64,000 bases of DNA from Bacteroidota bacterium. GTDB taxonomy: Bacteria > Bacteroidota > Bacteroidia > Bacteroidales > FEN-979. Every line of letters begins with the position of its first letter. Within the stretch, counting starts at the first letter, position 1. The position numbers were made by a program, and so were the translations under genes. The DNA is taken from assembly GCA_026391805.1 (NCBI GenBank), contig JAPLDJ010000010.1, positions 124,001 to 188,000 of the forward strand, in the 5' to 3' direction. This document shows positions 25,290 to 57,797 of the stretch, piece by piece. The notes below the pieces were generated by a model. That model was not told the DNA's origin and did not search any database. It saw nothing but the letters and a program-made list of their open reading frames with translations.

Positions 25290-26219
25290 TTAAAATATGA
25301 GTTCATCCACTACCGCACGGTCGATCTGAAGCTGTTTCTGCAGGTCTTCCATAGTGCTGAACGGTATTTCGTCGCGGATGAATTTATGAAAATAGACCGT
25401 TGCGCTGGTGCCGGTAAGCGATGCAGGCGTATCGAACAGGTAAAAGTCGACAACCGCCTCGATGGAGGATTGCCCGCGTTTCTTGATGAAACACATGCCC
25501 CGGAACGACTGCCGGTCATCCGAAACACTTACGGCATACACCCCGTTTGGCGGCAGCAGCTTGCTCTCTTCTTCGATCTTCACGCTGAAACTCGGGAATC
25601 CGATCTCCCTCAGCTTTGGTTTTACCTCCTGGATCAGTCCCATGATGATGTAGTGATGATCAAGGTATGCGTTGGCTTTCTGGATGTTCCCGTCCAGCAA
25701 GGCTTTTCGGATCTTGGTGGAGCTTACCGTCTCATTCTGGATGTCCTGCTCGGGGATCTCCTCGACATCAAAACCGTATTCCTTCCCGAGCTTCCGCAGG
25801 GCTTCATAATCCCCTTCGCGGTTGTGCCCGAAATGATGGTTGAACCCGATGACGATCTTGCGGGCATGGACTTTATTCAAAAGGATGTTCTTTACAAAAT
25901 CAACCGAGCTGATCCGGGAAAACTCAAGGGTGAAATCAACAATAATCAGGTGGCCGAGCCCGGCCTTGCGCAGCAGTTCGATTTTTTCCCGCTGGGAATT
26001 GATCAGGTAGAGGTCTTTGCCCGCTGTTTCGGGATACAGTACCTTTCGCGGATGGGGATGAAATGTGATGAGTACGGTTTCTCCTCCGATTTCGGTGGCC
26101 AGGTTCTTCAGTCGCTGGAGGATCACCTTGTGCCCGACGTGGACCCCGTCGAAAGATCCTGTGGTGACGACTGCATTCCGGATAAAGCCTGCCTCGTCGA
26201 AGTTCCTGTATATTTTCAA
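25290..26219 (-). CDS. ribF: Bifunctional riboflavin kinase / FAD synthetase
   Basis: 309 residues from TTG at 26219, chosen because GAAGG lies 6 nt upstream and the start is 10 bp after the rex stop; longer in-frame starts would lie inside rex. RibF makes FMN and FAD. The N-terminal adenylyltransferase domain shows TTGSFDGVHVGHKVILQRL and later SSTKIRKALLDGNI; the C-terminal riboflavin-kinase domain shows GFPSFSVKIEE, LPPNGVYAVSV and the end stretch with FYLFDTP and LQIDRAVVDE. Flavin supply fits the flavin-rich hydrogenase genes that follow upstream on the same strand. Confidence 0.93.
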   Translation of the reverse strand: MKIYRNFDEAGFIRNAVVTTGSFDGVHVGHKVILQRLKNLATEIGGETVLITFHPHPRKVLYPETAGKDLYLINSQREKIELLRKAGLGHLIIVDFTLEFSRISSVDFVKNILLNKVHARKIVIGFNHHFGHNREGDYEALRKLGKEYGFDVEEIPEQDIQNETVSSTKIRKALLDGNIQKANAYLDHHYIIMGLIQEVKPKLREIGFPSFSVKIEEESKLLPPNGVYAVSVSDDRQSFRGMCFIKKRGQSSIEAVVDFYLFDTPASLTGTSATVYFHKFIRDEIPFSTMEDLQKQLQIDRAVVDELIF

Positions 26220-26229
26220 TGGTAGCCTT

Positions 26230-26871
26230 CTATTTAAATCGTTCGTCGTTCTTCTTGGCAAAAAATGCCACTTTCTCCAGCGAGGTGATCATGTCGTATT
26301 CTTCGAGATAGACGTACGGGGAAACATTCAGCGGTTTTGGTGAATAATTCAGGATCCCTTTGGCGCCAGCCAGCACTAGCGTTTCGGCAATTGCAGGGGC
26401 TTGGTCGGCCGGAACCGTAATGATCCCGATGGTGATGTTCTCTTTCTTCATGATCTCTGCTATCCGGTCGACATGGTAGCAGGGCACACCGTCGTAGATC
26501 CGGTCGATCTTATCGGGATTCACGTCGAAGGCGGCAACGATGGTCAGCTTGGTACGTTTTCCCTTGAAATAGCTGATCATCGCCTTCCCGAGGTTGCCCA
26601 GCCCGACCACCACAACCTTCTGTCCTTTTTCCGTATCGATGATATGGCCGATCATGTCGATCAGTTCCTTGATGTCATATCCTTTCCGCAGGTTTCCGGA
26701 ATAGCCGATCAGCATCAGGTCGCGCCTTACCTGCACCGGTGTGATGTGCAGCATTTGCGCAATTTCGTGTGAAAATACATGGGTCTTCTCCTTCGACAGG
26801 ATCAACAGGAGTGCCCTTCTGTACTGGCTGAGCCGCTCAACGGTCTTATGTGGAAGATGCTTTACTATCAT
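26230..26871 (-). CDS. rex: Redox-sensing transcriptional repressor Rex
   Basis: 213 residues. Rex dimers bind operators when NADH is low and leave DNA when NADH/NAD+ rises. The N-terminal winged helix (about 1-75) has SHEIAQMLHITPVQVRRDLMLIGYSG; the Rossmann fold begins at VVVGLGNLGKAM (about 88-99), and the C-terminal swapped-dimer helix ends YDMITSLEKVAFFAKKND. Its ATG overlaps the stop codon of the receiver/kinase gene (ATGA), so translation is coupled to a signalling gene. Rex-type palindromes precede the hydrogenase operons of this window, its likely targets. Confidence 0.95.
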   Translation of the reverse strand: MIVKHLPHKTVERLSQYRRALLLILSKEKTHVFSHEIAQMLHITPVQVRRDLMLIGYSGNLRKGYDIKELIDMIGHIIDTEKGQKVVVVGLGNLGKAMISYFKGKRTKLTIVAAFDVNPDKIDRIYDGVPCYHVDRIAEIMKKENITIGIITVPADQAPAIAETLVLAGAKGILNYSPKPLNVSPYVYLEEYDMITSLEKVAFFAKKNDERFK

Positions 26872-27998
26872 AGTTTTTCTGATTGTGGAAGTGAAACAAT
26901 AAACGTACTGCCCTGGTCGGGAATGCTGGTTACATCAATGGTTCCTTCGTAGTTACCCGTTAGTTTCTTTACGATCGACAAGCCAAGCCCGCTACCCGTT
27001 ATATTTTTTGTTTTTTCATTCTTTATCCTGACAAAATCATGGAAAAGTTTTCCTTTTTCCACCTCCGTCATCCCGATCCCGGTATCGGTTACCCGGATCT
27101 CAATATGCCCGTTCTCCCGCGCAATTATTACGTCGACGGCCCCTCCCTCTTTGTTGTATTTGATCGCGTTTGAAAGAAGGTTGTTAAAAATAATATCAAT
27201 TTCGTTATGATCGGCATCCAGGATGACATTTTCGGGGCCGTGCAGGCTGATCCGGATATCCCGCTGGATGGCGTAAGGCTGGATGGCGTCGATGGCGGTC
27301 TGCATCGATTTGATCAGGTCAATGGGCAGGATGTTGCGCTGCGCCTTTCCGCTTTCAACCTTTGTAAGGTCAAGAAGATCGAGGATCAGGGTACGCATGC
27401 CATGAATACGTTCAAGGGAGCGGTTGAAAACCGTGTCATAATCTTCCATCTTATCTCCGAGCTGACGGTCCTTGGCCATTTTCAGGTATCCTTCGATGGC
27501 GTTCAGCGGTGCTTTCAGTTCATGCGACAGGACAGAAAGGAACTGGAAGCGGATCTGCCTTCCGGTATCTTTCAGCGTCTGCGTCATCTTCTTTAAGAAG
27601 ATCTTTTTCGTGATGTTCTCGATGGATGACCGCAGTTCCTGGGGGGTGAACGGCTTCGGGATAAAATCGGATGCGCCGTCGCTGGTGGCTTTTACGGCCA
27701 GCTCGAGTGATGCATACGAAGTGATCATGACGACGATGATCGGATATTGTTTTTTGCGGATGTACTCCAGCACCTCCACGCCCTGGATCCCGGGCAGTTT
27801 GTTGTCGAGGAGAAGGATATCCGGAATGTTTTTCTCGATGATCTCGATGCCGGCTTCCCCTGTCGGCGCTTCAAATACTTCAAAATCATAGGCCTCTTCC
27901 ATGAAGGGATAATCCACCCGGAAGTTCCGGAGAATACGGCTTACGCCGCTTCGTATCCCGGGTTCATCATCCACTACCAGTATTTTTAATGTCGCCAT
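26868..27998 (-). CDS. Receiver-histidine kinase hybrid protein
   Basis: 376 residues. An N-terminal receiver domain (about 5-130) has DDEP, the phospho-acceptor Asp in LLLDNKLPG (about 63), the Thr/Ser position MITSY and the Lys in IPKPFTP. A HisKA domain follows with SVLSHELKAPLNAIEGY (His near 160) and a HATPase with NNLLSNAIKYN, DTGIGM and GSGLGLSIV. There is no membrane segment, so it is cytosolic. It lies between a single receiver and rex and overlaps rex by 4 bp. It probably relays phosphate from the sensory hydrogenase kinase upstream (inference). Confidence 0.9.
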   Translation of the reverse strand: MATLKILVVDDEPGIRSGVSRILRNFRVDYPFMEEAYDFEVFEAPTGEAGIEIIEKNIPDILLLDNKLPGIQGVEVLEYIRKKQYPIIVVMITSYASLELAVKATSDGASDFIPKPFTPQELRSSIENITKKIFLKKMTQTLKDTGRQIRFQFLSVLSHELKAPLNAIEGYLKMAKDRQLGDKMEDYDTVFNRSLERIHGMRTLILDLLDLTKVESGKAQRNILPIDLIKSMQTAIDAIQPYAIQRDIRISLHGPENVILDADHNEIDIIFNNLLSNAIKYNKEGGAVDVIIARENGHIEIRVTDTGIGMTEVEKGKLFHDFVRIKNEKTKNITGSGLGLSIVKKLTGNYEGTIDVTSIPDQGSTFIVSLPQSEKL

Positions 27999-28037
27999 AG
28001 TGCTATTCCGGGTTCAAAAATACGGAAAATCGGTCAA

Positions 28038-28448
28038 TTACGATTTGTCCGCCTTTTCTGTAAGTAAACGTTCAATTTCCGATTTCAGGATGTCCGAACG
28101 GATGCCCTTGTCAAGGAAGAGGTCAGCCTTTATCCATTTGCGGTTGTTCTCATCCTGGATGTCGAAGGTAATGCCTGTTTCCATGGCAACAGCCGTGAAA
28201 ATGATCACCGGGACATCTGGGTATCTCTTTTTGATCTTGTAGCTGAGGATGAATCCGCTGTCCTCGTTTTCCATCATCAGGTCAAGGATGGCCAGGTCGG
28301 GTTTCGTTTTTTCAAGGATCAGCTCGGCTTCCCGCTGGCTTTCTGCCGTCACTGTCAGATATCCCATCTGCTCCAGCCTGATCCTCGACTGCAATAAAAA
28401 ATCAACATCATCATCCACGATCAGAAGTGTCTTTTTACCCGTTTGCAT
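28038..28448 (-). CDS. Stand-alone response-regulator receiver
   Basis: 136 residues from the ATG at 28448 (upstream in-frame codons to 28475 add only hydrophobic residues). Only a receiver domain is present: acidic triad in LLIVDDDVDF, acceptor Asp in LAILDLMMEN (about 56), Thr in IIFTAVA and Lys in FLDKGI. No output domain. It lies between the sensory-hydrogenase kinase gene and the receiver/kinase gene, so it is likely a relay protein in that pathway. Confidence 0.88.
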   Translation of the reverse strand: MQTGKKTLLIVDDDVDFLLQSRIRLEQMGYLTVTAESQREAELILEKTKPDLAILDLMMENEDSGFILSYKIKKRYPDVPVIIFTAVAMETGITFDIQDENNRKWIKADLFLDKGIRSDILKSEIERLLTEKADKS

Positions 28449-28488
28449 TTTAAATGAATTAAAAATTAGATACACTTAGAAAATTCAC

Positions 28489-28585
28489 TTTTGGACTAAA
28501 GTCCGGTAGCTGTTCGGTTTTCAATTACCCCGGCCTTAAGGCCGGGGTAACGCAGATGATTTGATTAATGGGCTTTAGCCCAAAA
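28489..28585. repeat. Three nested palindromes between sensor and receiver genes
   Basis: Three separate palindromes fill the 190-bp spacer: GGACTAAAGTCC (about 28493-28504), a perfect 26-bp palindrome at 28525-28550 (arms TTACCCCGGCCTT, no loop), and GGGCTTTAGCCC (about 28568-28579). All share the theme of C-rich/G-rich arms round a TTAA or CTTTAG centre. They could form strong mRNA hairpins that separate the sensor gene from the downstream relay genes. Confidence 0.7.
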
Positions 28586-28638
28586 CATCTTGCAATCCAT
28601 ATCATTTATTTCATTATTCATATCGCATAATTGTACCT

Positions 28639-30624
28639 TTATTCCATATTTCTCGGAATCGTAATCCTGAAGCTCGTTCCCGTCGGCTTTTTTGCCGGAT
28701 CGTCATTGGTCGTAATCGCGATCTTTCCCTTATGCATCTTGACGATCCCGTAGATCAGCGGCAATCCGAGCCCGGTTCCTTTTCCCATCTCTTTTGTTGT
28801 GAAGAACGGGGTGAAGATCTTTTCCATGTTTTCCTTTGGGATCCCCGTTCCCGTATCGGAAATAATAAAGACGATATCTTCTTTGTTCCCTTCAAGTCCG
28901 ATGTTTAAGGTGCCACCGCCGGGCATGGCTTCGATGGCATTCTTCTCCAGGTTTACCAGCACCTGCATCATCTGGTCGATATCAAGCCTGGCGATCGGAT
29001 CATCGATCCGGGGCTCGAAAACGATATTGATATTGTCGGGTTTAATAATGGAATTGAGGCTGTGCTGGGTGAACTGAACAACATCCGTTTCGGTGAGGTT
29101 GACCTGGTTCTTGCGTGCGAAGTTGAGCAGGCCGCTTACTATTTTCTTGCACCGTTCAGCCTGTTCCACGATCAGCTTCAGATCTTCCTTATTGGGATCA
29201 CCTTCGGCGGTTTCATCCATAAGTATATTTGAATACATGGTGATCACCCCAAGGGGATTGTTCAGCTCATGTGCAATGCCTGCTGACAGCTGACCCATAT
29301 GGGCCAACTTTTCCGATTGTTTCAGGGCAGCCTTGGCACTGGCCAGTTTGTCGTTGGAAATATTCAGGTTCCGTATGGAATCATGCAGTTGCTCAATGGA
29401 ATAGGGAAGGCACATCTCAGTTTCGGCCAGCCCCTTGACGATCGCGATCGCATGTTCAGTGCAGGTATCATACCCGCAGGCCCCGCAGTTCAGGTGGTCC
29501 TTGGCGGAGAATTTACCCATCGACTCGAGCGCATCCTTGATTTCGTCGCCGGTCGGCATTTCAAACCTTCTGTCATCGGGTTCAAAATGCTGAACAAAGG
29601 AGAGCCCGGAGAATTCTTCCACATCTTTCTCCCATTGGCCATAATCGAGTGTGTCGAGCTTTTCCCGCACATAGGAGCCCACGGCTGCGCTCCTGGCGTA
29701 TTTTTTCCCGCCGGGCGATGTGCCAGGACCCATGATGCAACCTTCGCAGCAGAGCAGTTCCAGGTGCTTGTTGCGGATCAGACCTTCTTCAAATTCTCTT
29801 ACGGCTTCCTTGAAATTGACACGTCCGTCAGCGATCACGGTCTTCTCTTCCGGAATGTCTTCCCTGCTGTTGGTTGTAAGGAAAAGCCCGCGTGTGATCG
29901 GGAAGATGGCGCCCTTACCCCCGACCGGGGGATCAAAATCGGATGGCCCGGCCGCTTCGGGATGAATATCCGATCGCTGAAACATCTCACGCAGTTCGAG
30001 GAAGGTCATCACTTCGTCAGTTTCGTTCGACTCAGCTTTCTTTGCAAAGCAGGGCCCGATGAAAACGATTTTCAGCTCCTCTCCATATTTCTTCCGCAAA
30101 ATGCGGGTCATGGCCACCATGGGTGAAACGATGGGTGCAAGCGAGCCGACAATGTCGGGATGATAGTGCCGGATAAAGTAGGTTACGGCAGGACAATCTG
30201 AGGAGATATCCCCGGTATAATCCTCCGACTTGATCCTCTTTTCATATTCTTTTGCAACCACATCGGCACCGAAAGCAACCTCTGTAACGTAATCAAACCC
30301 CAGTTTCCGGATCATCCCGACCAGGATCCGGTAGTTCTTTATTTCGCTGAACTCTGCAGGAAAACTCGGGGCGATGCAGGCAGCAACCTTGTGTCCTGAT
30401 TTCAGCAGCGAACAGACTTCATCCACCGAACGGAGGGAAACTTTTGCTCCCTGGCTGCAGACCTTAACGCAATTCCCGCAACCGATGCAGCGGTCGTTGA
30501 TCACTTCCGCCTGTCCGTTGATGATCTTGATGGCCTTGACAGGGCACTCACGCAGGCAGGTATAGCATACGCGGCAACGGTCCTTAAGGGTAAATACGAG
30601 TTGTGTCCTGAACGATTGACTCAT
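28639..30624 (-). CDS. hydS: Sensory [FeFe]-hydrogenase homologue fused to histidine kinase
   Basis: 661 residues, cytosolic. Order: two 4Fe-4S motifs (CRVCYTCLRECP, CIGCGNCVKVC), a [FeFe]-hydrogenase large-subunit domain with degenerate H-cluster motifs (SSDCPA near 143, GPCFAKKAE near 190, CCEGCIMGPG near 292), a small FeS domain (CGACGYDTC ... MC near 381-403), then HisKA (GIAHELNNPLGV, His near 452) and HATPase (EKNAIEAM, DTGTGIP, GTGLGLPL). All four Cys equivalents of the H-cluster ligands remain, but Asp replaces the proton-shuttling Cys. This matches the putatively sensory group C [FeFe] hydrogenases linked to kinases. It probably senses H2 or redox state and phosphorylates the receivers downstream. 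Confidence 0.88.
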   Translation of the reverse strand: MSQSFRTQLVFTLKDRCRVCYTCLRECPVKAIKIINGQAEVINDRCIGCGNCVKVCSQGAKVSLRSVDEVCSLLKSGHKVAACIAPSFPAEFSEIKNYRILVGMIRKLGFDYVTEVAFGADVVAKEYEKRIKSEDYTGDISSDCPAVTYFIRHYHPDIVGSLAPIVSPMVAMTRILRKKYGEELKIVFIGPCFAKKAESNETDEVMTFLELREMFQRSDIHPEAAGPSDFDPPVGGKGAIFPITRGLFLTTNSREDIPEEKTVIADGRVNFKEAVREFEEGLIRNKHLELLCCEGCIMGPGTSPGGKKYARSAAVGSYVREKLDTLDYGQWEKDVEEFSGLSFVQHFEPDDRRFEMPTGDEIKDALESMGKFSAKDHLNCGACGYDTCTEHAIAIVKGLAETEMCLPYSIEQLHDSIRNLNISNDKLASAKAALKQSEKLAHMGQLSAGIAHELNNPLGVITMYSNILMDETAEGDPNKEDLKLIVEQAERCKKIVSGLLNFARKNQVNLTETDVVQFTQHSLNSIIKPDNINIVFEPRIDDPIARLDIDQMMQVLVNLEKNAIEAMPGGGTLNIGLEGNKEDIVFIISDTGTGIPKENMEKIFTPFFTTKEMGKGTGLGLPLIYGIVKMHKGKIAITTNDDPAKKPTGTSFRITIPRNME

Positions 30625-30668: not shown

Positions 30669-32324
30669 CTAAACTTTCCCGTTGGTTTGGATGAATTCTG
30701 TTATCGAAGGGTTTTTATGAGCGACCTTAATCATCTCTTCCTCATCGGCATCGTAAAGTGCTTTCATCCTTGATTTCAGCGCCTTCTCATCGGTGCCAAG
30801 CCGTTGACCGCCGCCGTTGATGCACCCGAACGGGCAGGCCATCACCTCGACCATCACAAGGTCGCTGCGGCCGTTTTCAATTTCTTCCACCAGGAGCCGG
30901 GCGTTGTTCAGACCGCTGACGGCGGCAAATCCATAGGTGTTTCTTCCGAATTTGATCCGCGTCTCCTTCCGGTGCTTCAATCCCCTCAGATCATTGATCT
31001 TGACAGGACTTATCTCCTGACCGGTCAACTGGAAATGCAGGGTTCTTGCAACGGCTTCGGTCTCTCCGCCTGCGATTCCCGACAGTTTCCCGGCAGAGCC
31101 TCTCACGCCGAAGCCGAATTCCGTATTTTCAGGTTCAAGCGTGGAAAAATCAATACCGTAATGACGGATCAGGCGGATCAGCTCCCGGGTTGTCAGAACG
31201 GCATCGATCAACGGATCACCGTTCTCTGAACCGGATATGGCTTCATGCTTTTTTGATGTGCAGGGCATCACGGCAACGGAGAAGATATTCTCTTTCGGAA
31301 TGTTCATTCTCTCTGCAAACTGGTTTTTTATCCAGGATCCCATGATCTTCATCGGACTCTGGCTGGTGACGAGGTGCTCCTTCAGCCCGGGTTTGAATTC
31401 TTCAATGTATTTTACCCAGGAGGGGCAGCAGCTTGTGAAGAGCGGCATCTTTTCCTTGTCACGGATCCGCTGTGCCAGCTGTTTTGAGATCTCCATGATC
31501 ATCACGTCGGCGCTGGCGGAAGTATCAAATACCTGCCGGAATCCCATTCTCCGCAAAGCTGTGCCGAGTAATACCTGCAGGTCTTTTCCCCCTTTGATGC
31601 CAATGTCTTCCGCAATCGATCCCTGGACGCCCGGCGAGATCTGGATAACGGGAAACAGCCCTCTATTATTTAGAGCGTCGATAACGGCATTGTAACTGTT
31701 TTTTTCTCTCAGCGCGGCGGTCGGGCATACCATGATGCACTGTCCGCATTTTACACAGGCCTGGGTGTTAAGTCCCTTGTTCTGGCTGGTGCCGATCATG
31801 CTCCGGCTGCCCCTGCCTATGATCTCGATGGCGCTTACGCCGATGATCTCGTTGCAGACCCGGATGCAGCGGCCGCAGAGTATGCATTTGGCCGGATCGC
31901 GCTCTATGGAAGGACAGTTCCTGTCGACACGGACGGATGCTTTCCGGGTGCGGTAGTGGCGTTCTTTTATGTTTAATTCGAAGGCCAGGTCCTGGAGCTC
32001 GCAGTTACCCGATCGTTCACAGTAAAGACAATCGTCAGGATGATTGGCAAGCAGCAGTTCGATTACGGTCCTCCGGGCTTTCACGACCCTCGGTGAATGG
32101 GTGGTGATCTTCATCCATTCCTCAACCGGGTGCGAGCAGGAGGTGACCAGTCCGGGCATGCCTTCCACCTCCACGACGCACATGCGGCAGGCGCCCGTTG
32201 GCGTAAAGCCTGCAAGATGGCAAAGGGTCGGAATCCTGATCCCGGTACGGTTAAGCACGGCAAGGATGGTTTCGCCCCTCTTTGCAGTAACGGGTTGCCC
32301 GTTTATTTCTATCGTAAAGATCAT
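30669..32324 (-). CDS. hydA: [FeFe]-hydrogenase catalytic subunit HydA (HydABC type)
   Basis: 551 residues. It reduces protons with electrons from NADH and ferredoxin in the cytosol. Order: N-terminal 2Fe-2S domain (CHLAGFTPTGACRMC), the His/Cys 4Fe-4S motif HPDDCLYCERSGNC, two 4Fe-4S clusters (CILCGRCIRVC, CVKCGQCIMVC) and the H-cluster domain with all canonical motifs: TSCCPSW near 296, MPCTSKKHE near 354, MACPFGCINGGGQ near 495. It begins 8 bp after HydB and shares its operon with the sensory kinase 44 bp downstream. Assigned to group A. Confidence 0.95.
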   Translation of the reverse strand: MIFTIEINGQPVTAKRGETILAVLNRTGIRIPTLCHLAGFTPTGACRMCVVEVEGMPGLVTSCSHPVEEWMKITTHSPRVVKARRTVIELLLANHPDDCLYCERSGNCELQDLAFELNIKERHYRTRKASVRVDRNCPSIERDPAKCILCGRCIRVCNEIIGVSAIEIIGRGSRSMIGTSQNKGLNTQACVKCGQCIMVCPTAALREKNSYNAVIDALNNRGLFPVIQISPGVQGSIAEDIGIKGGKDLQVLLGTALRRMGFRQVFDTSASADVMIMEISKQLAQRIRDKEKMPLFTSCCPSWVKYIEEFKPGLKEHLVTSQSPMKIMGSWIKNQFAERMNIPKENIFSVAVMPCTSKKHEAISGSENGDPLIDAVLTTRELIRLIRHYGIDFSTLEPENTEFGFGVRGSAGKLSGIAGGETEAVARTLHFQLTGQEISPVKINDLRGLKHRKETRIKFGRNTYGFAAVSGLNNARLLVEEIENGRSDLVMVEVMACPFGCINGGGQRLGTDEKALKSRMKALYDADEEEMIKVAHKNPSITEFIQTNGKV

Positions 32325-32332
32325 GTTCCGGG

Positions 32333-34276
32333 TTATTTTAGGATGATTGCATTGAACTTACAGACGTCGAAACAGATGCCGCAGCCGGTGCATTTGTTCT
32401 CTACGATGAAATGCGGCACCTTGGGCACGCCGATGATGGCATCTTCAGGGCATTTTTTCTGGCAGACATTGCAGCCGTTGCATGCATCGACATCGATGTA
32501 GAAGGACCGCATGTCGCTGCAGACGGAAGCAGCACACCGGCGGTCGAAGATGTGTTCCTCGAACTCTTCCCGGAACCAGCGCAGGGCGCTGAGGAGCGGG
32601 TTTGCTGAATTCTGTCCGAGTCCGCAAAGGGATGTATCGTGAAGGACCTCTGCAAGGCTTTCCAGCTGTACAACGCCTTTGAAACGTTCAAGGGTATCAT
32701 GTGTGGTTTCTTCTCTAGGCCTCCTCGTGATCCCTTCCAGGATCTCGAGCATCCTTTTGGTCCCTTCACGGCAGGGAATGCATTTCCCGCAGCTTTCTTT
32801 TTGGAGGAATTCCATGAAATACCGTGAAAGGTCTACCATGCATACCGATTCATCCATTACAAGCAAACCGCCCGAACCGATCATGGCGCCGATCTCCCTG
32901 AGCGACTCGTAGCCGATCTCCACATCAAGGTTTGATGCAGGTATGCAGACTCCGGAAGGTCCCCCGATCTGGACGGCCTTGATTTTTTTATCTCCCAGGA
33001 TTCCTCCGCCGATCGTTTGAATGATGTCGGAAAGCTTCGTTCCCATGGGAACTTCAATGCATCCCTCATTCCGGATGTTTCCCGTGATGGAGAAGATCTT
33101 GGTTCCTTTGCTGGTCCTGCTGCCGATCCCTTTGAACCAGTGAGGGCCATGTTCAAGGATGGCAGGGATGTTGGCCAGCGTCTCCACATTGTTTACGATG
33201 GTCGGCTGGTTGAGAAGGCCGGCTTCGGCAGGGTAGGGGGGCTTTGCCCAGGGCGTTCCCCGCCTGCCTTCGAGGCTGCGGATGAGTGCTGTCTCCTCGC
33301 CGCTGACAAAGGCGCCTGCGCTCTGGCGGATGGAGATGTTCAGGTTGTAGCCGCTTCCGAAAATATTGTGTCCGAGGATCTCGTATTCTTTTGCCTGTCG
33401 TATGGCCTCTTCCAGGATGGCCAGCGCCTGGGGATAATCCGAGCGGATGTAGATGTATGCATAGCTGGCCCCGATCGCATACGATGCAATGGCTATCCCT
33501 TCAAGTAACCGGTGCGGATCGCCTTCGATGATCGCACGGTCCATGAAGGCTCCAGGATCACTCTCTTCGGCATTGCATATCAGGTATTTCTGGTCTCCGG
33601 CTGTGGTCAGTGCAACTTTCCATTTCTTTCCCGTGGAATACCCTCCGCCGCCGCGCCCCCTCAGCTCGCTGAGTTCAACAAGGTCGCAAACCTTTTCCGG
33701 CGTGTAATTGAGAATGGTCTTGTAATAGGAACGGTATCCTCCGCGTGTGATGTAGTCGGCTATCGATAACGGAGAGATGTACCCGGCATTCTTCAGGACC
33801 ACCTTCTGCTGCAAGGCAAAGAACGGCAACTGGTCGATAAACGGAACATTGGCCCATGTTTCCTGGGGCGTGGATTTATATTGCCCGAGCACATGATCGG
33901 TATTGACATTCCTGTTGAAGATCGCAGCGAGAATGTCTTCTGCCTTATCACTTGTAACCTTTCTGAATGAGATCCGTGCCTTTCCGGGAAGATGGACATC
34001 CATGATGGGCTCTTCTGAGCATAGCCCGATGCATCCGCATTCGATGATCTCCGCATTCACGGAGTTGTCGGCAAGGTACTTCCGGATCGCATCCCGGGTT
34101 TCAGCCGCGCCTGCAACCAATCCGCAGGAACCGGTTCCGATATAGATAACGGCCGAGTTGACCTTGTCCCTTCGCAATATGCTGATCCGCTCCTGCTCTT
34201 CTTTCAGAAGTTCACCGGTAAGGTTCTTCAGGACCTTTTCCAAAAGAAACGATTTATCTTCTGTCGTGATGTCCAT
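32333..34276 (-). CDS. hydB: NADH-binding flavin subunit HydB (NuoF-like, four-domain)
   Basis: 647 residues, like the long HydB of bifurcating HydABC enzymes. The N-terminal thioredoxin-like 2Fe-2S domain shows GSCGLVAGA and CGCIGLC. The NuoF core has the FMN/NADH loop LRGRGGGGYSTGKKWK near 207, ICNAEESDPG, and a 4Fe-4S site ESCGKCIPCREG near 487. Two ferredoxin clusters end the protein (CNGCNVCQKKCP, CTGCGICFDVC). It oxidises or reduces NAD(H) and passes electrons to HydA. It ends 8 bp before HydA and starts directly next to a GTTCGTT tandem repeat. Confidence 0.94.
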   Translation of the reverse strand: MDITTEDKSFLLEKVLKNLTGELLKEEQERISILRRDKVNSAVIYIGTGSCGLVAGAAETRDAIRKYLADNSVNAEIIECGCIGLCSEEPIMDVHLPGKARISFRKVTSDKAEDILAAIFNRNVNTDHVLGQYKSTPQETWANVPFIDQLPFFALQQKVVLKNAGYISPLSIADYITRGGYRSYYKTILNYTPEKVCDLVELSELRGRGGGGYSTGKKWKVALTTAGDQKYLICNAEESDPGAFMDRAIIEGDPHRLLEGIAIASYAIGASYAYIYIRSDYPQALAILEEAIRQAKEYEILGHNIFGSGYNLNISIRQSAGAFVSGEETALIRSLEGRRGTPWAKPPYPAEAGLLNQPTIVNNVETLANIPAILEHGPHWFKGIGSRTSKGTKIFSITGNIRNEGCIEVPMGTKLSDIIQTIGGGILGDKKIKAVQIGGPSGVCIPASNLDVEIGYESLREIGAMIGSGGLLVMDESVCMVDLSRYFMEFLQKESCGKCIPCREGTKRMLEILEGITRRPREETTHDTLERFKGVVQLESLAEVLHDTSLCGLGQNSANPLLSALRWFREEFEEHIFDRRCAASVCSDMRSFYIDVDACNGCNVCQKKCPEDAIIGVPKVPHFIVENKCTGCGICFDVCKFNAIILK

Positions 34277-34467
34277 TATGTTCGTTGTTCGTTGTTCGTT
34301 GTTCTGTATTCGCTACAATAATGTCACCGCTACGCGGTTTACTTGGTGCAATCCCAATTCTTTTCTAGAATAATATCACCGCTACGCGGTTTGTTTGTAA
34401 TTCCAATGTTCTCACCACGTCACCACTGCACCATATCGCTTCTTCGCCTTTCGCTATTTCGCTATTT
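34277..34467. repeat. Repeat block inserted between hydC and hydB
   Basis: The spacer inside the operon is made of repeats: TGTTCGT words (34279-34306), two copies of the ACCGCTACGCGGT hairpin element (34313-34341 and 34365-34392), and a CGCTATTT run (34452-34467). The last run lies inside hydC and supplies its final codons and stop. A CACTGCACCATAT word here resembles one at 18978-18987. Confidence 0.75.
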
Positions 34468-34918
34468 CAATAACCTTCATGAGCACCTTCCCCATCTTCT
34501 CCCTGGTCATATCCCCATATGCTTTCCCGTTTACCATCATTACCGGAGCATTCGCACAGGCCCCCAGGCAATTTACGATCTCAAGGCTGAATTTGCCGTC
34601 GCGTGTCGTTTGCCCGGCTTTGACCTGGAGGATCCTCTCTGCATCCTTCAGCAGAACGGATGAACGGTATACATGACAGGTGGTTCCCCTGCAGAGCTGA
34701 ATATGATAGCGACCCTTCGTGCCGAACCTGAACTGGTCATAAAAGGTTGCAACACCATAGATCTTGTTCAGGGGGATGTTCATGTGACGGCTCACTTCCG
34801 CGATCGAACCATCCGAAAGATGACCTGTCTCGCGCTGGATCTCCTGAAGCAGGGGGATTAATGCATCCTTCTTCCCGGGTGAATATTTCCGCAGGATTTT
34901 ATCTAAGGTTTCTTCCAT
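34454..34918 (-). CDS. hydC: 2Fe-2S subunit HydC (NuoE-like)
   Basis: 154 residues. Thioredoxin-like 2Fe-2S protein with ligands in LCRGTTCHVYRS (about 86-91) and CLGACANAPVMMV (about 124-128), plus the NuoE-type N-terminal helix bundle (LIPLLQEIQRETGHLSD). It passes electrons between HydB and HydA. It is the first gene of the operon, behind a TAATTTTG -7 box at 34957-34950. The last codons (EIAK and stop) are formed by a GAAATAGC tandem repeat. Confidence 0.93.
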   Translation of the reverse strand: MEETLDKILRKYSPGKKDALIPLLQEIQRETGHLSDGSIAEVSRHMNIPLNKIYGVATFYDQFRFGTKGRYHIQLCRGTTCHVYRSSVLLKDAERILQVKAGQTTRDGKFSLEIVNCLGACANAPVMMVNGKAYGDMTREKMGKVLMKVIEIAK

Positions 34919-34957: not shown

Positions 34958-34988
34958 ATATAATTATCTTTAAAATAAAGATTTTGTC

Positions 34989-35021
34989 TGTGAATTAATT
35001 AGCAATGTTAATAAATAAACA
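34989..35021. promoter_or_regulatory. Tandem Rex or CRP/FNR-type operators in a divergent promoter
   Basis: TGTGAATTAATTAGCA (34989-35004, two mismatches in the arms) and TGTTAATAAATAAACA (35006-35021, one mismatch) follow each other. Their centres are about 52 and 70 bp upstream of the likely hydC start site, the same spacing as at the Hnd operon. The second site also covers the expected -33 region of a plus-strand box TAACTTTG (35036-35043) that could serve the divergent sensor gene. A second plus-strand box TAAATTTG lies at 35077-35084. Confidence 0.55.
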
Positions 35022-35140
35022 GATGGAAAATATTTTAACTTTGTACTTTAATCTTTACAATTCATAGGAAAAAAGCTAAATTTGTCTGTGAAAGTACGAA
35101 GCGCGAAGCGTAGAGCGCTTGGCGCAAAACGAATAAAACA

Positions 35141-37006
35141 ATGATCGAACCTCTGTTCTTCATTCACCACGAAACCTGCATCCAGTGCTACGCCTGTGTC
35201 AGGATCTGTCCTGTCAAGGCCATTAAGGTGGATGCGGGAACAGAGTTTCCTTCGATCATCCCGGAGCGTTGCATCGGCTGCGGCAGCTGTTTCAGGGCCT
35301 GCGCTCCAGCAGCCATTACCTATCGCAGTTCAGTCGAAGAAACAAAAGCCCTTCTTGCATCCGGACAGCGGGTGGCTGCGATCTGCGATCCTACGATCTC
35401 CGGGGAATTCAATGATATCACCGATTACCGGAAGTTCGTGGAAATGATTCGTCAACTTGGATTTGCCTTCGTGAGCGAAGTCTCCTTCGGCGTCGATCTG
35501 GTGGCCTGGAAATACAAGGAACTGCTTGAGGATTTTCACGGAAAATATTACATCACGGCAAATTGCCCGGCCGTTGTTTCATTCATCGAAAAATATTATC
35601 CCGACCTGATCAATAACCTCGCACCGGTCGTCAGCCCGATGATCGCAACCACGCTGGCTGTCAGGAAGAATTACGGCAAGGATGTTAAGGTAGTCTTTAT
35701 CGGTCCCTGCATTGCAGCCAAGGATGAGGCGCAACGGTACAGCGGCGAAGCGGCCGTCGACTCGGTTCTGACCTTTGTCGAATTGCGGCAGCTTTTTAAC
35801 GAATTCAACATCCGTGAAAGCCAGCTTGAATTTTCGGAATTTGATCCTCCTTTCGGGAATAAAGGTTCTCTTTATCCCCTCAGCGAGGGGATCATCCAGG
35901 CAGCAGAGCTGAGCCAGGACCTGCTCAGTGGGAGGATCATCACGACGGAAGGCAGGAATAACATGCTCGACGCTGTCAAGGAATTTGATTCAAGGATCGA
36001 CATGATCCGGCACCATTTTAATATTTTTTATAACGAAGGCTGCCTGATGGGACCGGGAACATCGGCCGGCGGCGAAAAATTCCTGCGCCGGACCCTCGTT
36101 ACCGATTATGCCAATAAACGCCTCCAGGACTTTGATCCGGAAACCTGGGAAAAAAATATGAAAACCTATGGAAGCCTGGATCTTGTAAGATCATTTACGG
36201 AAGATGACCAGCGGTTGCCGCAGCCATCCGAAGATATGGTCAGGGAAATCTTACACAGCATCGGAAAAGAGGGCGAGATGGAGAATAACATCGGATGTGA
36301 ATCCTGCGGATACGCGAACTGCCGTGAATTTGCAGTTGCGATCGCCCAGGGCCTGGCCACCACCGATATGTGCCATATCTACAGTTCAAAAAACCGCCAG
36401 GAATACATCAAGTCGCTGCGTTCGGCCAATGAAAAGCTGGCCAGCACCCAGGCGGCCCTTAAGGAGTCTGAAGAAAAGGCCAAACATGAACAGGAAGCTG
36501 AAAAAGAGGCCACGGAATCAATGTCAGCTATGTTGCAGAAGCTGGTCTCAGGAGTGGTGATCGTCGACGAAAACCTGAAGATCCTTCATTCAAACAGGGC
36601 TTTTGTCAGGATCCTGGGGGATGATGCCGCCATGGTCGACGAGGTCATTCCCGGGCTTGTCGGCGCCGATCTTAAAACATTGCTTCCGGTTCATTTTTAT
36701 AAATTGTTTTCCTATGTCATCGGTTCGGATGAGGATCTTGAAAACAAGGATATTCAGTACGGCGACAATACGCTGAGCGTTTCCGTTTTCCCGATCCGTA
36801 AAAACAAGATTGCCGGAGGTATCCTGCGCGACATGTACACCCCTGAAGTGCGCAAGGAACAGATCATCCGGCGGCTGACGGAAGCCATCGACGAGAATTT
36901 CGGGATGGTTCAGAAAATCGCATACCTGCTCGGCGAAGGCTCTGCAAAAACAGAAAAGATCCTGAAAACGGTGATCGAATCGCATCAGTCTCCTCCGAAT
37001 AAATAA
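35141..37006 (+). CDS. Sensory [FeFe]-hydrogenase homologue with PAS domain
   Basis: 621 residues, cytosolic. Two N-terminal 4Fe-4S motifs (CIQCYACVRICP, CIGCGSCFRAC), a [FeFe]-hydrogenase large-subunit domain, a small FeS domain (CESCGYANC ... MC, about 384-412), a coiled-coil linker and a PAS-like domain (about 465-565). Its H-cluster motifs are degenerate: TANCPA near 141 (Asn for the proton-shuttling Cys), GPCIAAKDE near 188, and FYNEGCLMGPG near 300, where Tyr stands for the first Cys of the usual CxxGC. It belongs with the phosphatase-linked sensory hydrogenases: the SpoIIE gene follows 9 bp later. The hairpin AAGCGC/GCGCTT lies 20 bp before the start. Confidence 0.85.
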   Translation: MIEPLFFIHHETCIQCYACVRICPVKAIKVDAGTEFPSIIPERCIGCGSCFRACAPAAITYRSSVEETKALLASGQRVAAICDPTISGEFNDITDYRKFVEMIRQLGFAFVSEVSFGVDLVAWKYKELLEDFHGKYYITANCPAVVSFIEKYYPDLINNLAPVVSPMIATTLAVRKNYGKDVKVVFIGPCIAAKDEAQRYSGEAAVDSVLTFVELRQLFNEFNIRESQLEFSEFDPPFGNKGSLYPLSEGIIQAAELSQDLLSGRIITTEGRNNMLDAVKEFDSRIDMIRHHFNIFYNEGCLMGPGTSAGGEKFLRRTLVTDYANKRLQDFDPETWEKNMKTYGSLDLVRSFTEDDQRLPQPSEDMVREILHSIGKEGEMENNIGCESCGYANCREFAVAIAQGLATTDMCHIYSSKNRQEYIKSLRSANEKLASTQAALKESEEKAKHEQEAEKEATESMSAMLQKLVSGVVIVDENLKILHSNRAFVRILGDDAAMVDEVIPGLVGADLKTLLPVHFYKLFSYVIGSDEDLENKDIQYGDNTLSVSVFPIRKNKIAGGILRDMYTPEVRKEQIIRRLTEAIDENFGMVQKIAYLLGEGSAKTEKILKTVIESHQSPPNK

Positions 37007-37015
37007 CAATCCTCC

Positions 37016-38200
37016 TTGGACGGAAAATTTTACATCGAGATCAACTGCCAGCAGAAAAACCACAGCGATGAAAGGGTTTGCGGCGATGTTTTTCTTTCAA
37101 AGAAGATCCGGGAGGAGGGGAGGATCATCGTGGTGCTTTCCGACGGGCTTGGCCACGGGATAAAAGCGAACCTGCTGGCCATCCTGACCTCCACGCTTGC
37201 CGCGAACTTCATGGAGGAACGCAGTGAGATCAGCCGGATCGCAGGCATCATCATGGAAACACTTCCGTATGATCAGGTCAAAAAACTGAACTATTCCACT
37301 TTTACCATCGTTGAGATCGATGCCGAAGGCGAGGTTAAGATCATAGAGTACGAGAACCCGAAGAGTGCGATTTTCCGTGGCGGAAGATTGTTTGAACCGG
37401 AATGGAACGGGATCATCCTTGATCCTGAAAAATTTCCCGGGAAAGAGATCCTCACCACCAGCTTTAAGGCCGTGAAAGAGGATCGTCTGGTATTCTGCAC
37501 GGATGGCGTGGTTCAATCCGGATTGGGGGGAGAGACCTTTGCAACTGGATGGGGCCAGGAAAATTTTGAAAAATACGTGCTCGAATCCATCCGCGAAGAG
37601 CCGGATATTTCGGCGGTGAAGCTTGCCGGAAGGGTGATCAACAGGGCGAATTTAAACGATGAGTTTTTCCCGAAGGACGATATGAGCTGTGCCGTCATCT
37701 ATTTCCGTGATCCCCGCAAACTGATGATCTGTACCGGACCTCCCGAGGAGGAAGAACGGGATGGCGAATATGCCGGGATTCTTGAAGCGTTCGAAGGTAA
37801 AAGGATCATCTGTGGCGCCACTACCTCCGACATCATTGCAAGGGAGTGGAAAAAAGAGATCACCGATTCCAATGTGATCTCTGATCCTGAACTGCCGCCG
37901 GTTTCGACGATGGAAGGTGTTGAACTGATCACTGAAGGCATCCTGACCCTGAGCAAGGTCAATGAACTGCTTAAATCATGGACTCAGTCCACGAAACTGG
38001 GCAAAGGTCCCGCTGATGAGATAGTAAAACTGATCCTTGATTCCGATGAGATCCATTTCCTGGCCGGGACCAGGATCAATGTTGCTCACCAGGACCCGAC
38101 CCTGCCGGTCGACCTTGAACTCCGCCGCACCGTTGTTCACCGCATCACCCGCGTCCTCGAGGAGAAATTTCTGAAAGAGGTTTCCATGCGCTTCTTCTGA
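37016..38200 (+). CDS. SpoIIE-family (PP2C-like) serine phosphatase
   Basis: 394 residues, TTG start at 37016 (the only start between the upstream stop and the conserved N-terminus). The SpoIIE/PP2C core shows VCGDVFLSKK, IIVVLSDGLGHGIKAN (metal-binding Asp), RLVFCTDGVVQ and KDDMSCAVIYF, the usual four acidic motifs. A C-terminal region of about 130 residues has no clear assignment. Such phosphatases act on phosphoserine in anti-sigma antagonists of partner-switch systems; no STAS protein or RsbW-like kinase is in the window. It directly follows the PAS sensory hydrogenase, its presumed input. Confidence 0.85.
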   Translation: MDGKFYIEINCQQKNHSDERVCGDVFLSKKIREEGRIIVVLSDGLGHGIKANLLAILTSTLAANFMEERSEISRIAGIIMETLPYDQVKKLNYSTFTIVEIDAEGEVKIIEYENPKSAIFRGGRLFEPEWNGIILDPEKFPGKEILTTSFKAVKEDRLVFCTDGVVQSGLGGETFATGWGQENFEKYVLESIREEPDISAVKLAGRVINRANLNDEFFPKDDMSCAVIYFRDPRKLMICTGPPEEEERDGEYAGILEAFEGKRIICGATTSDIIAREWKKEITDSNVISDPELPPVSTMEGVELITEGILTLSKVNELLKSWTQSTKLGKGPADEIVKLILDSDEIHFLAGTRINVAHQDPTLPVDLELRRTVVHRITRVLEEKFLKEVSMRFF

Positions 38201-42695: not shown

Positions 42696-42730
42696 TTGTG
42701 AAATAATTCACATTGTTAATAAAATAACAT
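42696..42730. promoter_or_regulatory. Tandem Rex or CRP/FNR-type operators upstream of the Hnd operon
   Basis: TGTGAAATAATTCACA (42697-42712) is a perfect palindrome. It fits both Rex (TTGTGA-N6-TCACAA) and CRP/FNR (TGTGA-N6-TCACA). It is followed at once by TGTTAATAAAATAACA (42714-42729, one mismatch pair), which fits the TTGTTAA-N4-TTAACAA Rex form. Centres lie about 53 and 70 bp upstream of the likely start site, positions more usual for activation than for blocking. Confidence 0.65.
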
Positions 42731-42771: not shown

Positions 42772-43473
42772 TTAATCTGAATGGATCACCAGCCTGAATC
42801 CATTCCCGTGGATGTTGATTATTTCAATGGAAGGATCAGGTTTAAGGCATTTTCGCAGACGTGCCAGGAAGACATCCATGCTGCGCGTTGTGAAATAATC
42901 CTCTTTTCCCCAGATCTGCCGCAGGGCATCACTCCTGGTCAGGATGCCTTCTTTTGCTGTACAGAGCATTTTAAGCAGTTCGGACTCCTTGGGTGACAGC
43001 GACTGAACAAGGTTTCCGAGTTTAAGTGTCCGGAGCCGGGTGTCGAACTGAAACTTACCCACTTCGTAATGCTGCGGTTGTTCTGCAGATTCGGCGGCCA
43101 TTGCATTCCGTTTGAGGATGGCGGCGATCTTGTAAAGAAGAACCTCGGAATCGAAAGGTTTGGTCAGGTAATCATCGGCGCCAATCCTGAATCCTTCAAG
43201 AACATCTTCTTTCAGCGTCTTGGCCGTGAGGAAGATCATGGGGATTTTACTGTTCAGCTTCCTGATCTCGCGGGCAAGCGTAAAGCCGTCCATCTCCGGC
43301 ATCATGATATCGAGGATGCAGAGTTCGAATGCATAGGTCCTGAAGGCGGATAATCCCTGCTTCCCGTCCATCTTCAGCATGACTTCGTAATCGGCCAGTT
43401 CAAGGTACGATTTCAGGATCGAACCGAAGTTCGTGTCGTCCTCAACCAGAAGTATCCTTGATTTTTTTACCAT
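42772..43473 (-). CDS. OmpR-family response regulator
   Basis: 233 residues. Receiver domain about 1-120 (VEDDTNF, acceptor Asp in LCILDIMMPEMDGF, Thr in IFLTAKT, Lys in LTKPFDS) and a winged-helix DNA-binding domain about 130-230 (LSPKESELLKMLCTAKEGILTR is split here into LSPKESELLKML and EGILTR; then TRSMDVFLARLRKCL). It pairs with the kinase at 43734, from which it is separated by 260 bp of repeats. The sensed signal is unknown. Its 3' end faces no gene on its strand until hndB, 183 bp on. Confidence 0.92.
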   Translation of the reverse strand: MVKKSRILLVEDDTNFGSILKSYLELADYEVMLKMDGKQGLSAFRTYAFELCILDIMMPEMDGFTLAREIRKLNSKIPMIFLTAKTLKEDVLEGFRIGADDYLTKPFDSEVLLYKIAAILKRNAMAAESAEQPQHYEVGKFQFDTRLRTLKLGNLVQSLSPKESELLKMLCTAKEGILTRSDALRQIWGKEDYFTTRSMDVFLARLRKCLKPDPSIEIINIHGNGFRLVIHSD

Positions 43474-52080: not shown

Positions 52081-52098
52081 TTGTTAACAAACTAACAA
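52081..52098. promoter_or_regulatory. rex operator: Rex-type operator over the -33 region
   Basis: TTGTTAACAAACTAACAA matches TTGTTAA-N4-TTAACAA with one mismatch. It lies 9 bp upstream of the -7 box at 52071 and so covers the -33 region, a position fit for repression. Confidence 0.65.
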
Positions 52099-52409
52099 CA
52101 GGAATTTAATTTTTTCACAATCTGTAAATTTATAAACAATCTAAACAAAATTCTGATGAACTCGCCCTTCTTCTTTAAAGATTACCCACCTAAAAAGGAA
52201 TTCTAAAAAACCTCAAAATGTTTCACACAAAGGACGCAATGGGTTGTCGCTAAGACCGTAAAGAAAACTTATAAAAAAAATGCATTCTGCGTCCTTTGCG
52301 TATTTCTTTGCGTCCTTTGCGTGAAATTATCTTTTGAGAAAGCATCACTGGAGGTGTATTTGGGGATAATCTACCAGTGAGTTATTACGATTTCATTCCT
52401 CTCTTTTCT

Positions 52410-53892: not shown

Positions 53893-54006
53893 AAATCCTC
53901 AGAATAAATATTTATAGGATGAAAGTAGAAAAAATATTCTTCCGCAGGTTCAATTTTTTATCTGATATATTAGTTTCTCATGAATATTTATTACTTTTAC
54001 ATATTC

Positions 54007-54022
54007 TGTTAATTTATTCACA
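54007..54022. promoter_or_regulatory. Rex or CRP/FNR-type operator before the fusion-hydrogenase operon
   Basis: TGTTAATTTATTCACA, a palindrome with one mismatch pair (arms CTGTTAA / TTCACAG). It lies 26 bp before the start of the small membrane gene and just after a weak -7 box TACTTTTA (53992-53999), so it may cover the start site. Confidence 0.55.
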
Positions 54023-54048
54023 GGTAACGGAAATAAAATCATTCCACT

Positions 54049-57400: not shown

Positions 57401-57797
57401 GGGCATCCGCGAGGCCTCGCTGCTGATCGAGAATCCTCTGCCGGAATGGAATTTCCTGCACGGTGTCGAAGTGAAAGTTGCGATCGCGCATGGACTTGCC
57501 AATGCACGGCACATCATGCAATCGATCAAAAACGGAACAGCCGATTACCACCTGATCGAGATCATGGCCTGCCCCGGGGGCTGCCTTGGTGGCGGCGGAC
57601 AACCCATACCGACGAATCCTGAAATACGGGAGAAACGTGTACAGGCACTTTATGCAGAGGAAATGGGACTGGAATTACGGAAGTCGCATGAGAACCCAGA
57701 GGTGATAACGCTTTACGAGGATTTCCTTGACGAGCCGCTCAGCGAGAAGGCTCACGAGCTTTTGCATACACACTACCTGAAGAGAAGGGTCTATTAA
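54483..57797 (+). CDS. Fusion: SDR/epimerase, RsbRD-like helical domain and [FeFe]-hydrogenase HydA
   Basis: 1104 residues in one open frame. Residues 1-330 are an extended SDR of the NAD-dependent epimerase/dehydratase type: ITGASGFIGRY (nucleotide loop), LHLAAFYDF, FASSLAA (Ser) and YAKTKKF (Tyr-x3-Lys). Residues about 350-505 are helical and resemble the RsbRD N-terminal domain (MEDIAIARFNEGFHATEICDLL). From residue 509 follows a complete HydA: 2Fe-2S (CYHKDLQIAGNCRVC), His/Cys cluster (HNADCTKCYKNGKC), two 4Fe-4S (CIRCQRCIRTC, CTNCGQCIDRC), TSCSPGW near 816, MPCTAKKFE near 873, MACPGGCLGGGGQP near 1029. Where HydA at 50321 starts with ATG, the fusion has TTA (56007), so no internal start remains. 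All catalytic motifs of both end domains look intact. Confidence 0.9.
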   Translation: MKNDPPTIIITGASGFIGRYFMDMVKEHYQVIAIARRTSKEAGIPFHPNIFWIQWDIGSKVQLKEVLQTIQNRGGADYLLHLAAFYDFDYSDNTAYQRTNVEGTVHIVELARQLNIKRFIFASSLAACNFPLPGEVVNEKSSPDADFAYAKTKKFGEELLRKTAKDFPCTVVRFAAVFSDLCEYPPLYKFLETWLSRKYDSRILGGKGESAVSYIHIHELAKLLLSIIQQSHKLPSFDIYAASPDGCTSHKQLFEIATKDYFGEPVKPIHVPKLIAYPGIFFRIMMGKIGLTPMPFERFWMLKYVDLKLFVDSSYSRKMLSWEPSPRHQIERRLLFLLARMKSNPGEWNARNEAALKHISIRVNLVIYEMMVTDKEKILAKINARILSLENSEKFKDYQNKPPDEFWLLTSTTYNLLASTVYNADRSLMINYMEDIAIARFNEGFHATEICDLLDIFNEVITQYLVDSQDYKFTRQEIYDYIGITLQLAKDEIEEKFEVFELKTSPEALTNQIKLKLDGIEVKVDEGISILDAARQNNINIPTLCYHKDLQIAGNCRVCLVEEKHAKQLIASCATPVEEGMDILTNSIKVRTARRTIIDLLLSEHNADCTKCYKNGKCELQALASEFKIINPLFIDLVPFKKYSIDDLSPSIVKDDSKCIRCQRCIRTCSQIQEVSAVAAVNKGPQMKISTYFGRPLFEVICTNCGQCIDRCPTGALVEKNYIEEVWKAIFDPNKHVVVQTAPAVRIAIGEDLGIEPGKRVTGKLVSALRKLGFDSVLDTAFTADLTIIEEGNEFLDRLKRTMLFEDPEAVLPMTTSCSPGWIKYLEQTFPEYIPNVSTCKSPQQMFGVLAKTYYAEKMDLKPENIVTVSIMPCTAKKFEADRPEMRDSGFKDVDFVLTTRELAIMINQAGIDFKSLPNDHYDSIMGKATGAGVIFGATGGVMEATLRTVYEKITGREIPFENLVVTPVRGMQGIREASLLIENPLPEWNFLHGVEVKVAIAHGLANARHIMQSIKNGTADYHLIEIMACPGGCLGGGGQPIPTNPEIREKRVQALYAEEMGLELRKSHENPEVITLYEDFLDEPLSEKAHELLHTHYLKRRVY

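What the first reader, a model, noticed from the sequence alone, without database searches (positions are those of the whole stretch)
26230..30624. Sensory hydrogenase kinase, receiver, receiver-kinase and rex form one relay
Seen: a [FeFe]-hydrogenase-like sensor fused to a histidine kinase, then a single receiver, then a receiver-kinase, whose stop overlaps the rex start (ATGA). None of the three signalling proteins has a DNA-binding output; the only DNA-binding protein in the row is Rex. Inference: H2 or redox sensing by the hydrogenase domain may be joined with NADH sensing by Rex to control the hydrogenase operons.
Basis: partly seen in the sequence, partly recalled or inferred. Interest (0 to 1): 0.7.

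Follow-up and report, generated by a model that had tools for sequence, protein, structure and literature searches.

The report
Hydrogen-sensing kinase cassette, Rex-controlled operon
Next to its hydrogen-handling enzyme this bacterium carries a hydrogen-sensing kinase, a lone receiver and a receiver-kinase that stay together across distant relatives, while the neighbouring gene regulator Rex probably switches the whole operon but is not the last step of the kinase chain.

Summary
In detail: 28639-30624 is an [FeFe]-hydrogenase-like sensor fused to a histidine kinase (HydS), 28038-28475 a lone receiver, 26868-27998 a receiver-kinase, and 26230-26871 rex, whose start overlaps the previous stop (ATGA). 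The phosphorylation and metal-ligand residues tested are conserved.

The idea of one relay ending in Rex is not supported. HydS-receiver-receiver-kinase is the conserved unit: RECHK present in 70 of 70 near loci with enough sequence, and all three in order in 25 of 25 loci from another class at about 41% identity. rex adjoins it in 36 of 66 loci, is absent from the rows shown for the distant class, and survives, usually with ribF, where the trio is lost or decayed.

Rex nevertheless probably controls this operon: Rex-type operators, usually a pair exactly 17 bp apart, lie upstream of hydC in 42 of 44 rex/hsfB-type loci, and upstream of the operon in 16 of 26 loci of the other type, where rex is unlinked. 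In the window such sites precede four hydrogenase transcription units.

Best reading: Rex sets transcription of hydrogenase and sensor; the relay ends elsewhere.

The parts
28639..30624 (-). HydS-HK: [FeFe]-hydrogenase-like sensor fused directly to a histidine kinase, 661 aa; two N-terminal [4Fe-4S], H-domain, 4-Cys Fe-S, HisKA, HATPase
   Evidence: ligand cysteines and phospho-His invariant in 81 of 81 rows
28038..28475 (-). REC: single-domain receiver, 145 aa (GTG start), with a changed alpha-4 region
   Evidence: phospho-Asp 75 of 75; model mean pLDDT 87.7
26868..27998 (-). RECHK: receiver fused to histidine kinase, 376 aa
   Evidence: phospho-Asp and phospho-His 71 of 71
26230..26871 (-). 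rex, 213 aa, start overlaps RECHK stop by ATGA
25290..26261 (-). ribF (FAD synthetase / riboflavin kinase), the steadier partner of rex
30669..32324 (-). hydA, [FeFe]-hydrogenase catalytic subunit (below NCBIfam A6 cut-off)
32333..34276 (-). hydB, NuoF-like subunit
34454..34918 (-). hydC, NuoE-like subunit, first gene of the operon
34988..35005 (.). Rex-type operator 1 (CTGTGAATTAATTAGCAA), 21.7 bits
   Evidence: matrix built without the window
35005..35022 (.). Rex-type operator 2 (ATGTTAATAAATAAACAG), 19.1 bits, exactly 17 bp from operator 1
35141..37006 (+). second sensory hydrogenase with PAS (hsfB-like), divergent from hydC across the operator pair
37016..38200 (+). SpoIIE-type phosphatase next to the second sensory hydrogenase
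42696..42730 (.). Rex-type operator pair (22.1 and 20.8 bits, 17 bp apart) before the hydB2-hydA2 operon
52081..52139 (.). two Rex-type sites (16.9 and 16.3 bits) before the hydrogenase operon 51995-48528
54006..54023 (.). Rex-type site (21.0 bits) before the epimerase-hydrogenase ORF at 54483

Best explanation
Two layers of control meet on one operon. (1) Rex, sensing NADH/NAD+, binds a pair of operators between hydC and the divergent second sensor and represses hydC-hydB-hydA-HydS-REC-RECHK-rex (and probably the other hydrogenase operons) until NADH is high; so the sensor is made together with the enzyme, and Rex is autoregulated. (2) HydS reads H2 or redox state through its H-domain and Fe-S chain, changes the activity of its own kinase, and passes phosphate to REC and/or the receiver of RECHK; RECHK then drives a target that is not encoded in the row. 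Rex is the transcriptional gate of the relay, not its terminus. Shown here: the genes, conserved catalytic residues, conserved trio order, separability of rex and trio, recurrent Rex-type operators. Inferred: H2 as ligand, phosphotransfer routes, repression by Rex. Unknown: the final target, for which I think an unlinked DNA-binding response regulator is most likely.
For: Trio order: REC 75 of 76, RECHK 70 of 70 near loci with enough sequence; 25 of 25 distant loci. rex separable: 36 linked, 30 not, of 66; rex kept elsewhere in 25 of the 30 genomes without linked rex; rex kept in family genomes without intact trio, including a RECHK remnant at the rex start in G006 and a gutted HydS with RECHK deleted in G010. 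Operators: recalled consensus reached in 36 of 44 type A upstream regions against 3.9% in shuffles; cross-validation 26 of 26 and 12 of 18; 33 pairs exactly 17 bp apart against 2 other spacings; type B 16 of 26 against 0.4 expected; operator before the type B operon of G014 and G026, where rex lies on another contig. Residues intact.
Against: No binding, phosphotransfer or expression data. Type B loci without a site (10 of 26) and the distant class (18 of 19 without) show that Rex control is not general. On the HydS tree rex linkage changes only twice, so the many genomes are few independent events. Nearly all genomes are metagenome assemblies. The covariation test gave no support for any particular kinase-receiver pair.
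Confidence: 0.65

Rival explanations
1. One reading: the phosphorelay acts on Rex itself (RECHK or a phosphorylated receiver binds or modifies Rex), so hydrogen and NADH signals merge in one protein.
For: ATGA overlap and tight linkage in most close relatives of the same type; rex linked in 36 of 66 loci.
Against: Trio without linked rex in 30 of 66 near and 25 of 25 distant loci; rex without intact trio in 8 genomes of the same family; Rex has no receiver domain; ribF, not the trio, is the steadier neighbour of rex.
Confidence: 0.08
2. The relay works after transcription: phosphorylated REC (and REC2 or REC3 in other lineages), whose alpha-4 face is changed, binds the hydrogenase or another enzyme directly, so no DNA-binding protein is needed.
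For: No DNA-binding gene labelled in the row in 25 of 25 distant loci, nor among the signalling genes of the window row apart from Rex; lone receivers recur beside hydC in three arrangements; changed alpha-4 region in the REC model and alignment; hydC, hydB and hydA upstream in 67 of 70 loci with 6 kb of upstream sequence.
Against: No direct evidence for a contact; lone receivers can also be phosphate sinks or relay intermediates; 15 of 29 type B loci do have a NarL-type regulator nearby.
Confidence: 0.2
3. The output is the OmpR-type regulator at 42772-43473, beside the second hydrogenase operon, reached by RECHK, whose kinase is of the class that commonly serves OmpR-type partners (recalled).
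For: DNA-binding regulator with receiver in the same island; RECHK kinase resembles PnpS/PhoR.
Against: It has its own adjacent kinase, and a kinase plus regulator of similar lengths is present near rex in genomes without the trio (G006, G007, G012, G020), so it does not follow the trio.
Confidence: 0.12

Closest known systems
Group C (sensory, histidine-kinase-linked) [FeFe]-hydrogenases, HydDB class C1 or C3
   Same: H-domain with N-terminal Fe-S and C-terminal 4-Cys cluster, kinase link, gene next to a bifurcating-type hydrogenase (PMC5037454 passages; PMC11406978 passages)
   Different: No PAS; fused straight to the kinase; almost always followed by a lone receiver and a receiver-kinase
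HydS and Rex in Ruminococcus albus and Hnd of Solidesulfovibrio fructosivorans
   Same: A sensory hydrogenase and Rex both proposed to regulate the bifurcating hydrogenase; a predicted Rex site in the hnd promoter (PMC10084766 passages; PMC5707799 passages)
   Different: In R. albus the signal is proposed to pass via PAS to a Ser/Thr kinase; here a histidine kinase relay with two receivers, and a conserved operator pair
hfsB / phosphatase-linked sensory hydrogenase (C3)
   Same: The window also has this type at 35141-38200, with PAS and a SpoIIE phosphatase
   Different: It is a separate, divergently transcribed unit without kinase or receiver
TamHydS (group D, Thermoanaerobacter mathranii)
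   Same: Sensor-like hydrogenase beside a bifurcating hydrogenase, with a kinase-like ATPase nearby (PMC8163306 passages)
   Different: Not fused to a kinase; flanked by an AraC regulator

Membership tests
Rex redox-sensing repressor | N-terminal winged helix plus Rossmann NAD(H) domain over curated cut-off | tested here: met
   Pfam PF06971 and PF02629; NF003995, NF003996, NF003994 over cut-off; GxGxxG glycines 37 of 37
Rex redox-sensing repressor | Inverted-repeat operator near TTGTGAA-N4-TTCACAA (recalled consensus) at target promoters | tested here: met
Rex redox-sensing repressor | NADH-dependent release from DNA | not testable with these tools
   needs a binding assay
Group C sensory [FeFe]-hydrogenase | Four H-cluster cysteines in L1, L2, L3 | tested here: met
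   ORF residues C144, C192, C292, C296, invariant in 81 of 81 (whose numbers are 3 higher)
Group C sensory [FeFe]-hydrogenase | Two N-terminal [4Fe-4S] motifs and the extra C-terminal 4-Cys cluster | tested here: met
Group C sensory [FeFe]-hydrogenase | PAS domain passing the signal on | tested here: not met
   no PAS hit in HydS; the second sensor at 35141 has one. The passages read differ on whether PAS is required, so I do not treat it as defining
Group C sensory [FeFe]-hydrogenase | HydDB class assignment C1 or C3 | not testable with these tools
   HydDB is not on hand
Histidine-kinase phosphorelay | Phospho-His, N/G boxes, receiver Asp/Thr(Ser)/Lys | tested here: met
   HydS phospho-His 81 of 81, RECHK His and Asp 71 of 71, REC Asp and Lys 75 of 75
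Histidine-kinase phosphorelay | Phosphotransfer HydS to REC and RECHK | not testable with these tools
   covariation inconclusive
HydABC group A6 NADH-dependent hydrogenase (hydA at 30669) | NCBIfam NF040763 cut-off 765 bits | tested here: not met
   602.7 bits; hydA2 at 38925 meets it with 901.3

The most novel reading that the evidence does not exclude
A kinase-and-receiver-only hydrogen relay, conserved across classes of Bacteroidota, controls the bifurcating hydrogenase directly at the protein level: phosphorylated lone receivers with a remodelled alpha-4 face dock on the hydrogenase, while Rex or another regulator only sets transcription.
Probability: 0.2. Interest if true: 0.75.

Novelty: new variant of a known kind. 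Interest (0 to 1): 0.5.

Why it matters
How sensory [FeFe]-hydrogenases hand on their signal is open: HydDB lists the role of group C as undetermined. Here the downstream parts are fixed by conservation: a lone receiver and a receiver-kinase, kept for so long that only about 41% identity of the sensor remains, with no DNA-binding output among them. That gives a defined set of proteins for phosphotransfer tests, and the operator pair gives a defined DNA target for Rex. It also separates two signals, NADH and H2, that are often discussed together in fermenting anaerobes.

Tried and rejected
First counts from a greedy ORF picker missed REC in several loci and rex in L091 (an antisense ORF was chosen); the tblastn counts replace them. 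Promoter and terminator consensus scans of the operon were near chance level. Kinase-receiver covariation on 95 loci holding all three proteins was uninformative (interface-block rank 0.33-0.57). Independence of the rex/hsfB association could not be tested: only 1-2 independent pairs on the tree. Own-genome search for the type B receiver REC2 found only weak partial receivers, at most about 37% identity. NtrC-type candidates for the output were read: one at C17 has no adjacent kinase, one at C16 sits in its own cluster, one at C18 has no receiver; none could be tied to the trio. The HydS model is only moderate (mean pLDDT 76.7, linker 401-455 below 50), so I draw no mechanism from it; its hydrogenase half matches [FeFe]-hydrogenases and its kinase half ZraS. 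REC matches ordinary receivers.

Rows dropped before counts: loci whose contig ends too near were left out of each denominator; 2 RECHK and 1 rex row shorter than 80% of the median; 3 type B loci with under 1.2 kb upstream; 8 of 81 loci not classed or without hydC in the operator counts. Of the 27 genomes other than the window's own with hits, 25 were fetched; the two left out (G377, G152) had about 600-aa open frames; G377's (L203) is of the PAS and phosphatase type, G152's was not read.
Full report
What is there. They close a minus-strand row hydC-hydB-hydA-HydS-REC-RECHK-rex-ribF. RECHK and rex overlap by ATGA. HydS and REC are 163 bp apart, a gap that holds short inverted repeats. On the other side of the hydC promoter, divergently, lies a second sensory hydrogenase with PAS and a SpoIIE phosphatase. 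The window belongs to a 3.89-Mb genome in 28 contigs; most of its named relatives are titled Bacteroidales or Bacteroidetes metagenome genomes.

The parts look functional. Across the window and 80 named loci, the eight N-terminal cluster cysteines, the four H-cluster cysteines, the four cysteines of the extra cluster, the phospho-histidine and the tested ATP-box residues of HydS are invariant in 81 of 81 rows, apart from Glu/Asp exchange in 4 rows at one N-box position; the receiver Asp and Lys are invariant in 75 of 75 REC and 71 of 71 RECHK rows, as is the RECHK histidine. Before the first H-cluster cysteine HydS has Asp in 81 of 81, where catalytic enzymes have the proton-relay cysteine (recalled; CpI C299); in the distant class this position is not conserved.

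The trio is the conserved unit. In the 81 loci REC follows HydS in 75 of 76 and RECHK in 70 of 70 with enough downstream sequence; the exception, L138, has RECHK directly after HydS. hydC, hydB and hydA all lie upstream in 67 of 70 loci with 6 kb of upstream sequence. In a phylum sample of 395 genomes, 28 including the window's own have a strong HydS hit, and the others are listed as same phylum only. I fetched 25 of the 27 others: all 25 keep HydS-REC-RECHK in this order at about 41% identity, with a PAS inside RECHK in the one scanned by Pfam; 19 of 25 have hydC-hydB-hydA before them, and 19 of 25 a further lone receiver after them, usually followed by a second hydrogenase set and often a membrane kinase. 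No rex is labelled in the rows shown; several genes there stayed unlabelled.

rex is a separable neighbour. Of 66 loci with at least 3.3 kb downstream, 36 have rex and 30 do not. Those without mostly run on into the maturases (hydG in 25 of 30) and carry another lone receiver, REC2, before hydC; REC2 was found in 25 of the rex-less loci and none of the rex loci, while hsfB accompanied rex in 30 loci and occurred without it in 3. 15 of 29 REC2 loci also have a NarL-type regulator, in L095 beside a Cache-PAS kinase. On the HydS tree these states change only twice, so they are few events. 25 of 30 genomes without linked rex have a rex elsewhere, 24 of them strongly similar. Conversely, among 37 genomes of the window's family 34 have rex, and 8 of these lack an intact trio (G001, G003, G006, G007, G010, G012, G020, G023). 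ribF still follows rex in 7 of the 8, the eighth being cut by a contig end. G006 keeps a RECHK remnant overlapping the rex start, and G010 a gutted HydS with REC and rex intact and RECHK gone. Three of these genomes are only 83-87% complete, but the local order shows the loss. ribF follows rex in 34 of 36 rex-linked loci.

Rex probably controls the operon. A consensus recalled from the literature is reached at 12 or more of 14 positions in 36 of 44 upstream regions of the rex/hsfB type, against 3.9% of shuffled regions, and in 0 of 29 of the REC2 type, where the stretch is partly REC2 coding sequence. A matrix trained on one clade finds sites in the other: 26 of 26 and 12 of 18, against 1.7% and 4.8% in shuffles. 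With a matrix from 35 relatives, window left out, 42 of 44 have a site near hydC, though these loci trained it; 33 neighbouring sites are exactly 17 bp apart and 2 at other distances. In the REC2 type the sites lie further up, before the operon, in 16 of 26 loci against 0.4 expected; in one clade two sites are 63 bp apart before REC2. G014 and G026, members of the window's family with the REC2-type operon and rex on another contig, have a strong site before that operon. In the distant class only 1 of 19 has a site, and a poor one. In the window the seven best sites (16.3-22.1 bits) lie before four hydrogenase transcription units; 8 sites reach 13 bits where 0.55 are expected, though one of 60 shuffles reached 19.4.

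What follows. Rex and the trio meet on one operon but are lost and gained separately, so Rex is best read as the transcriptional gate and not as the end of the phosphorelay. The relay's own target is unknown; an unlinked DNA-binding regulator is the conventional choice, a direct protein target the bolder one. In favour of the latter, the lone receivers share a changed region after the conserved Thr, which in ordinary receivers is part of the output face (recalled).

Literature. HydDB calls C1 histidine-kinase-linked and C3 phosphatase-linked, role undetermined (PMC5037454, passages). A study of Hydrogenedentota reports C1 and C3 genes beside bifurcating A3 hydrogenases, some with a kinase domain (PMC11406978, passages). 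Joint control by HydS and Rex has been proposed for R. albus and S. fructosivorans (PMC10084766 and PMC5707799, passages; Zheng 2014 itself was not held). I found no description of the HydS-receiver-receiver-kinase trio or of the operator pair in the listings of searches or the passages read, which cover only the held library.

Noticed in passing
54483-57797 (+): One 1104-aa ORF joins an NAD-dependent epimerase domain, a helical-looking stretch and a full [FeFe]-hydrogenase catalytic subunit; a real fusion or an assembly effect was not tested.
   Followed up: no
26230-63962: A hydrogenase island: four [FeFe]-type catalytic genes, two sensory hydrogenases and a [NiFe] hydrogenase with an HdrA-like protein, with Rex-type sites before four transcription units.
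   Followed up: partly
28476-28638: The gap between HydS and REC holds short GC-rich inverted repeats resembling a REP-type element.
   Followed up: no
30669-32324: The hydA next to the trio scores below the NCBIfam cut-offs for group A and A6, whereas hydA2 at 38925 passes both.
   Followed up: no
L093, L096, L099: In these three related loci hydA is not directly before HydS; in L093 phosphate-transport genes (pst-like) lie between hydCBA and HydS, and genes of the same lengths precede HydS in the other two.
   Followed up: partly
L095:1500-5593: Type B operons: a Cache-PAS-HisKA_3 kinase, a NarL-type regulator and the receiver REC2 stand before hydC.
   Followed up: partly
L207-L231: In another class of the phylum the same trio is usually followed by a third lone receiver, a second hydrogenase set and a membrane kinase.
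   Followed up: partly
L138: A contig titled Spirochaetia carries HydS followed directly by RECHK without REC and without hydCBA.
   Followed up: no
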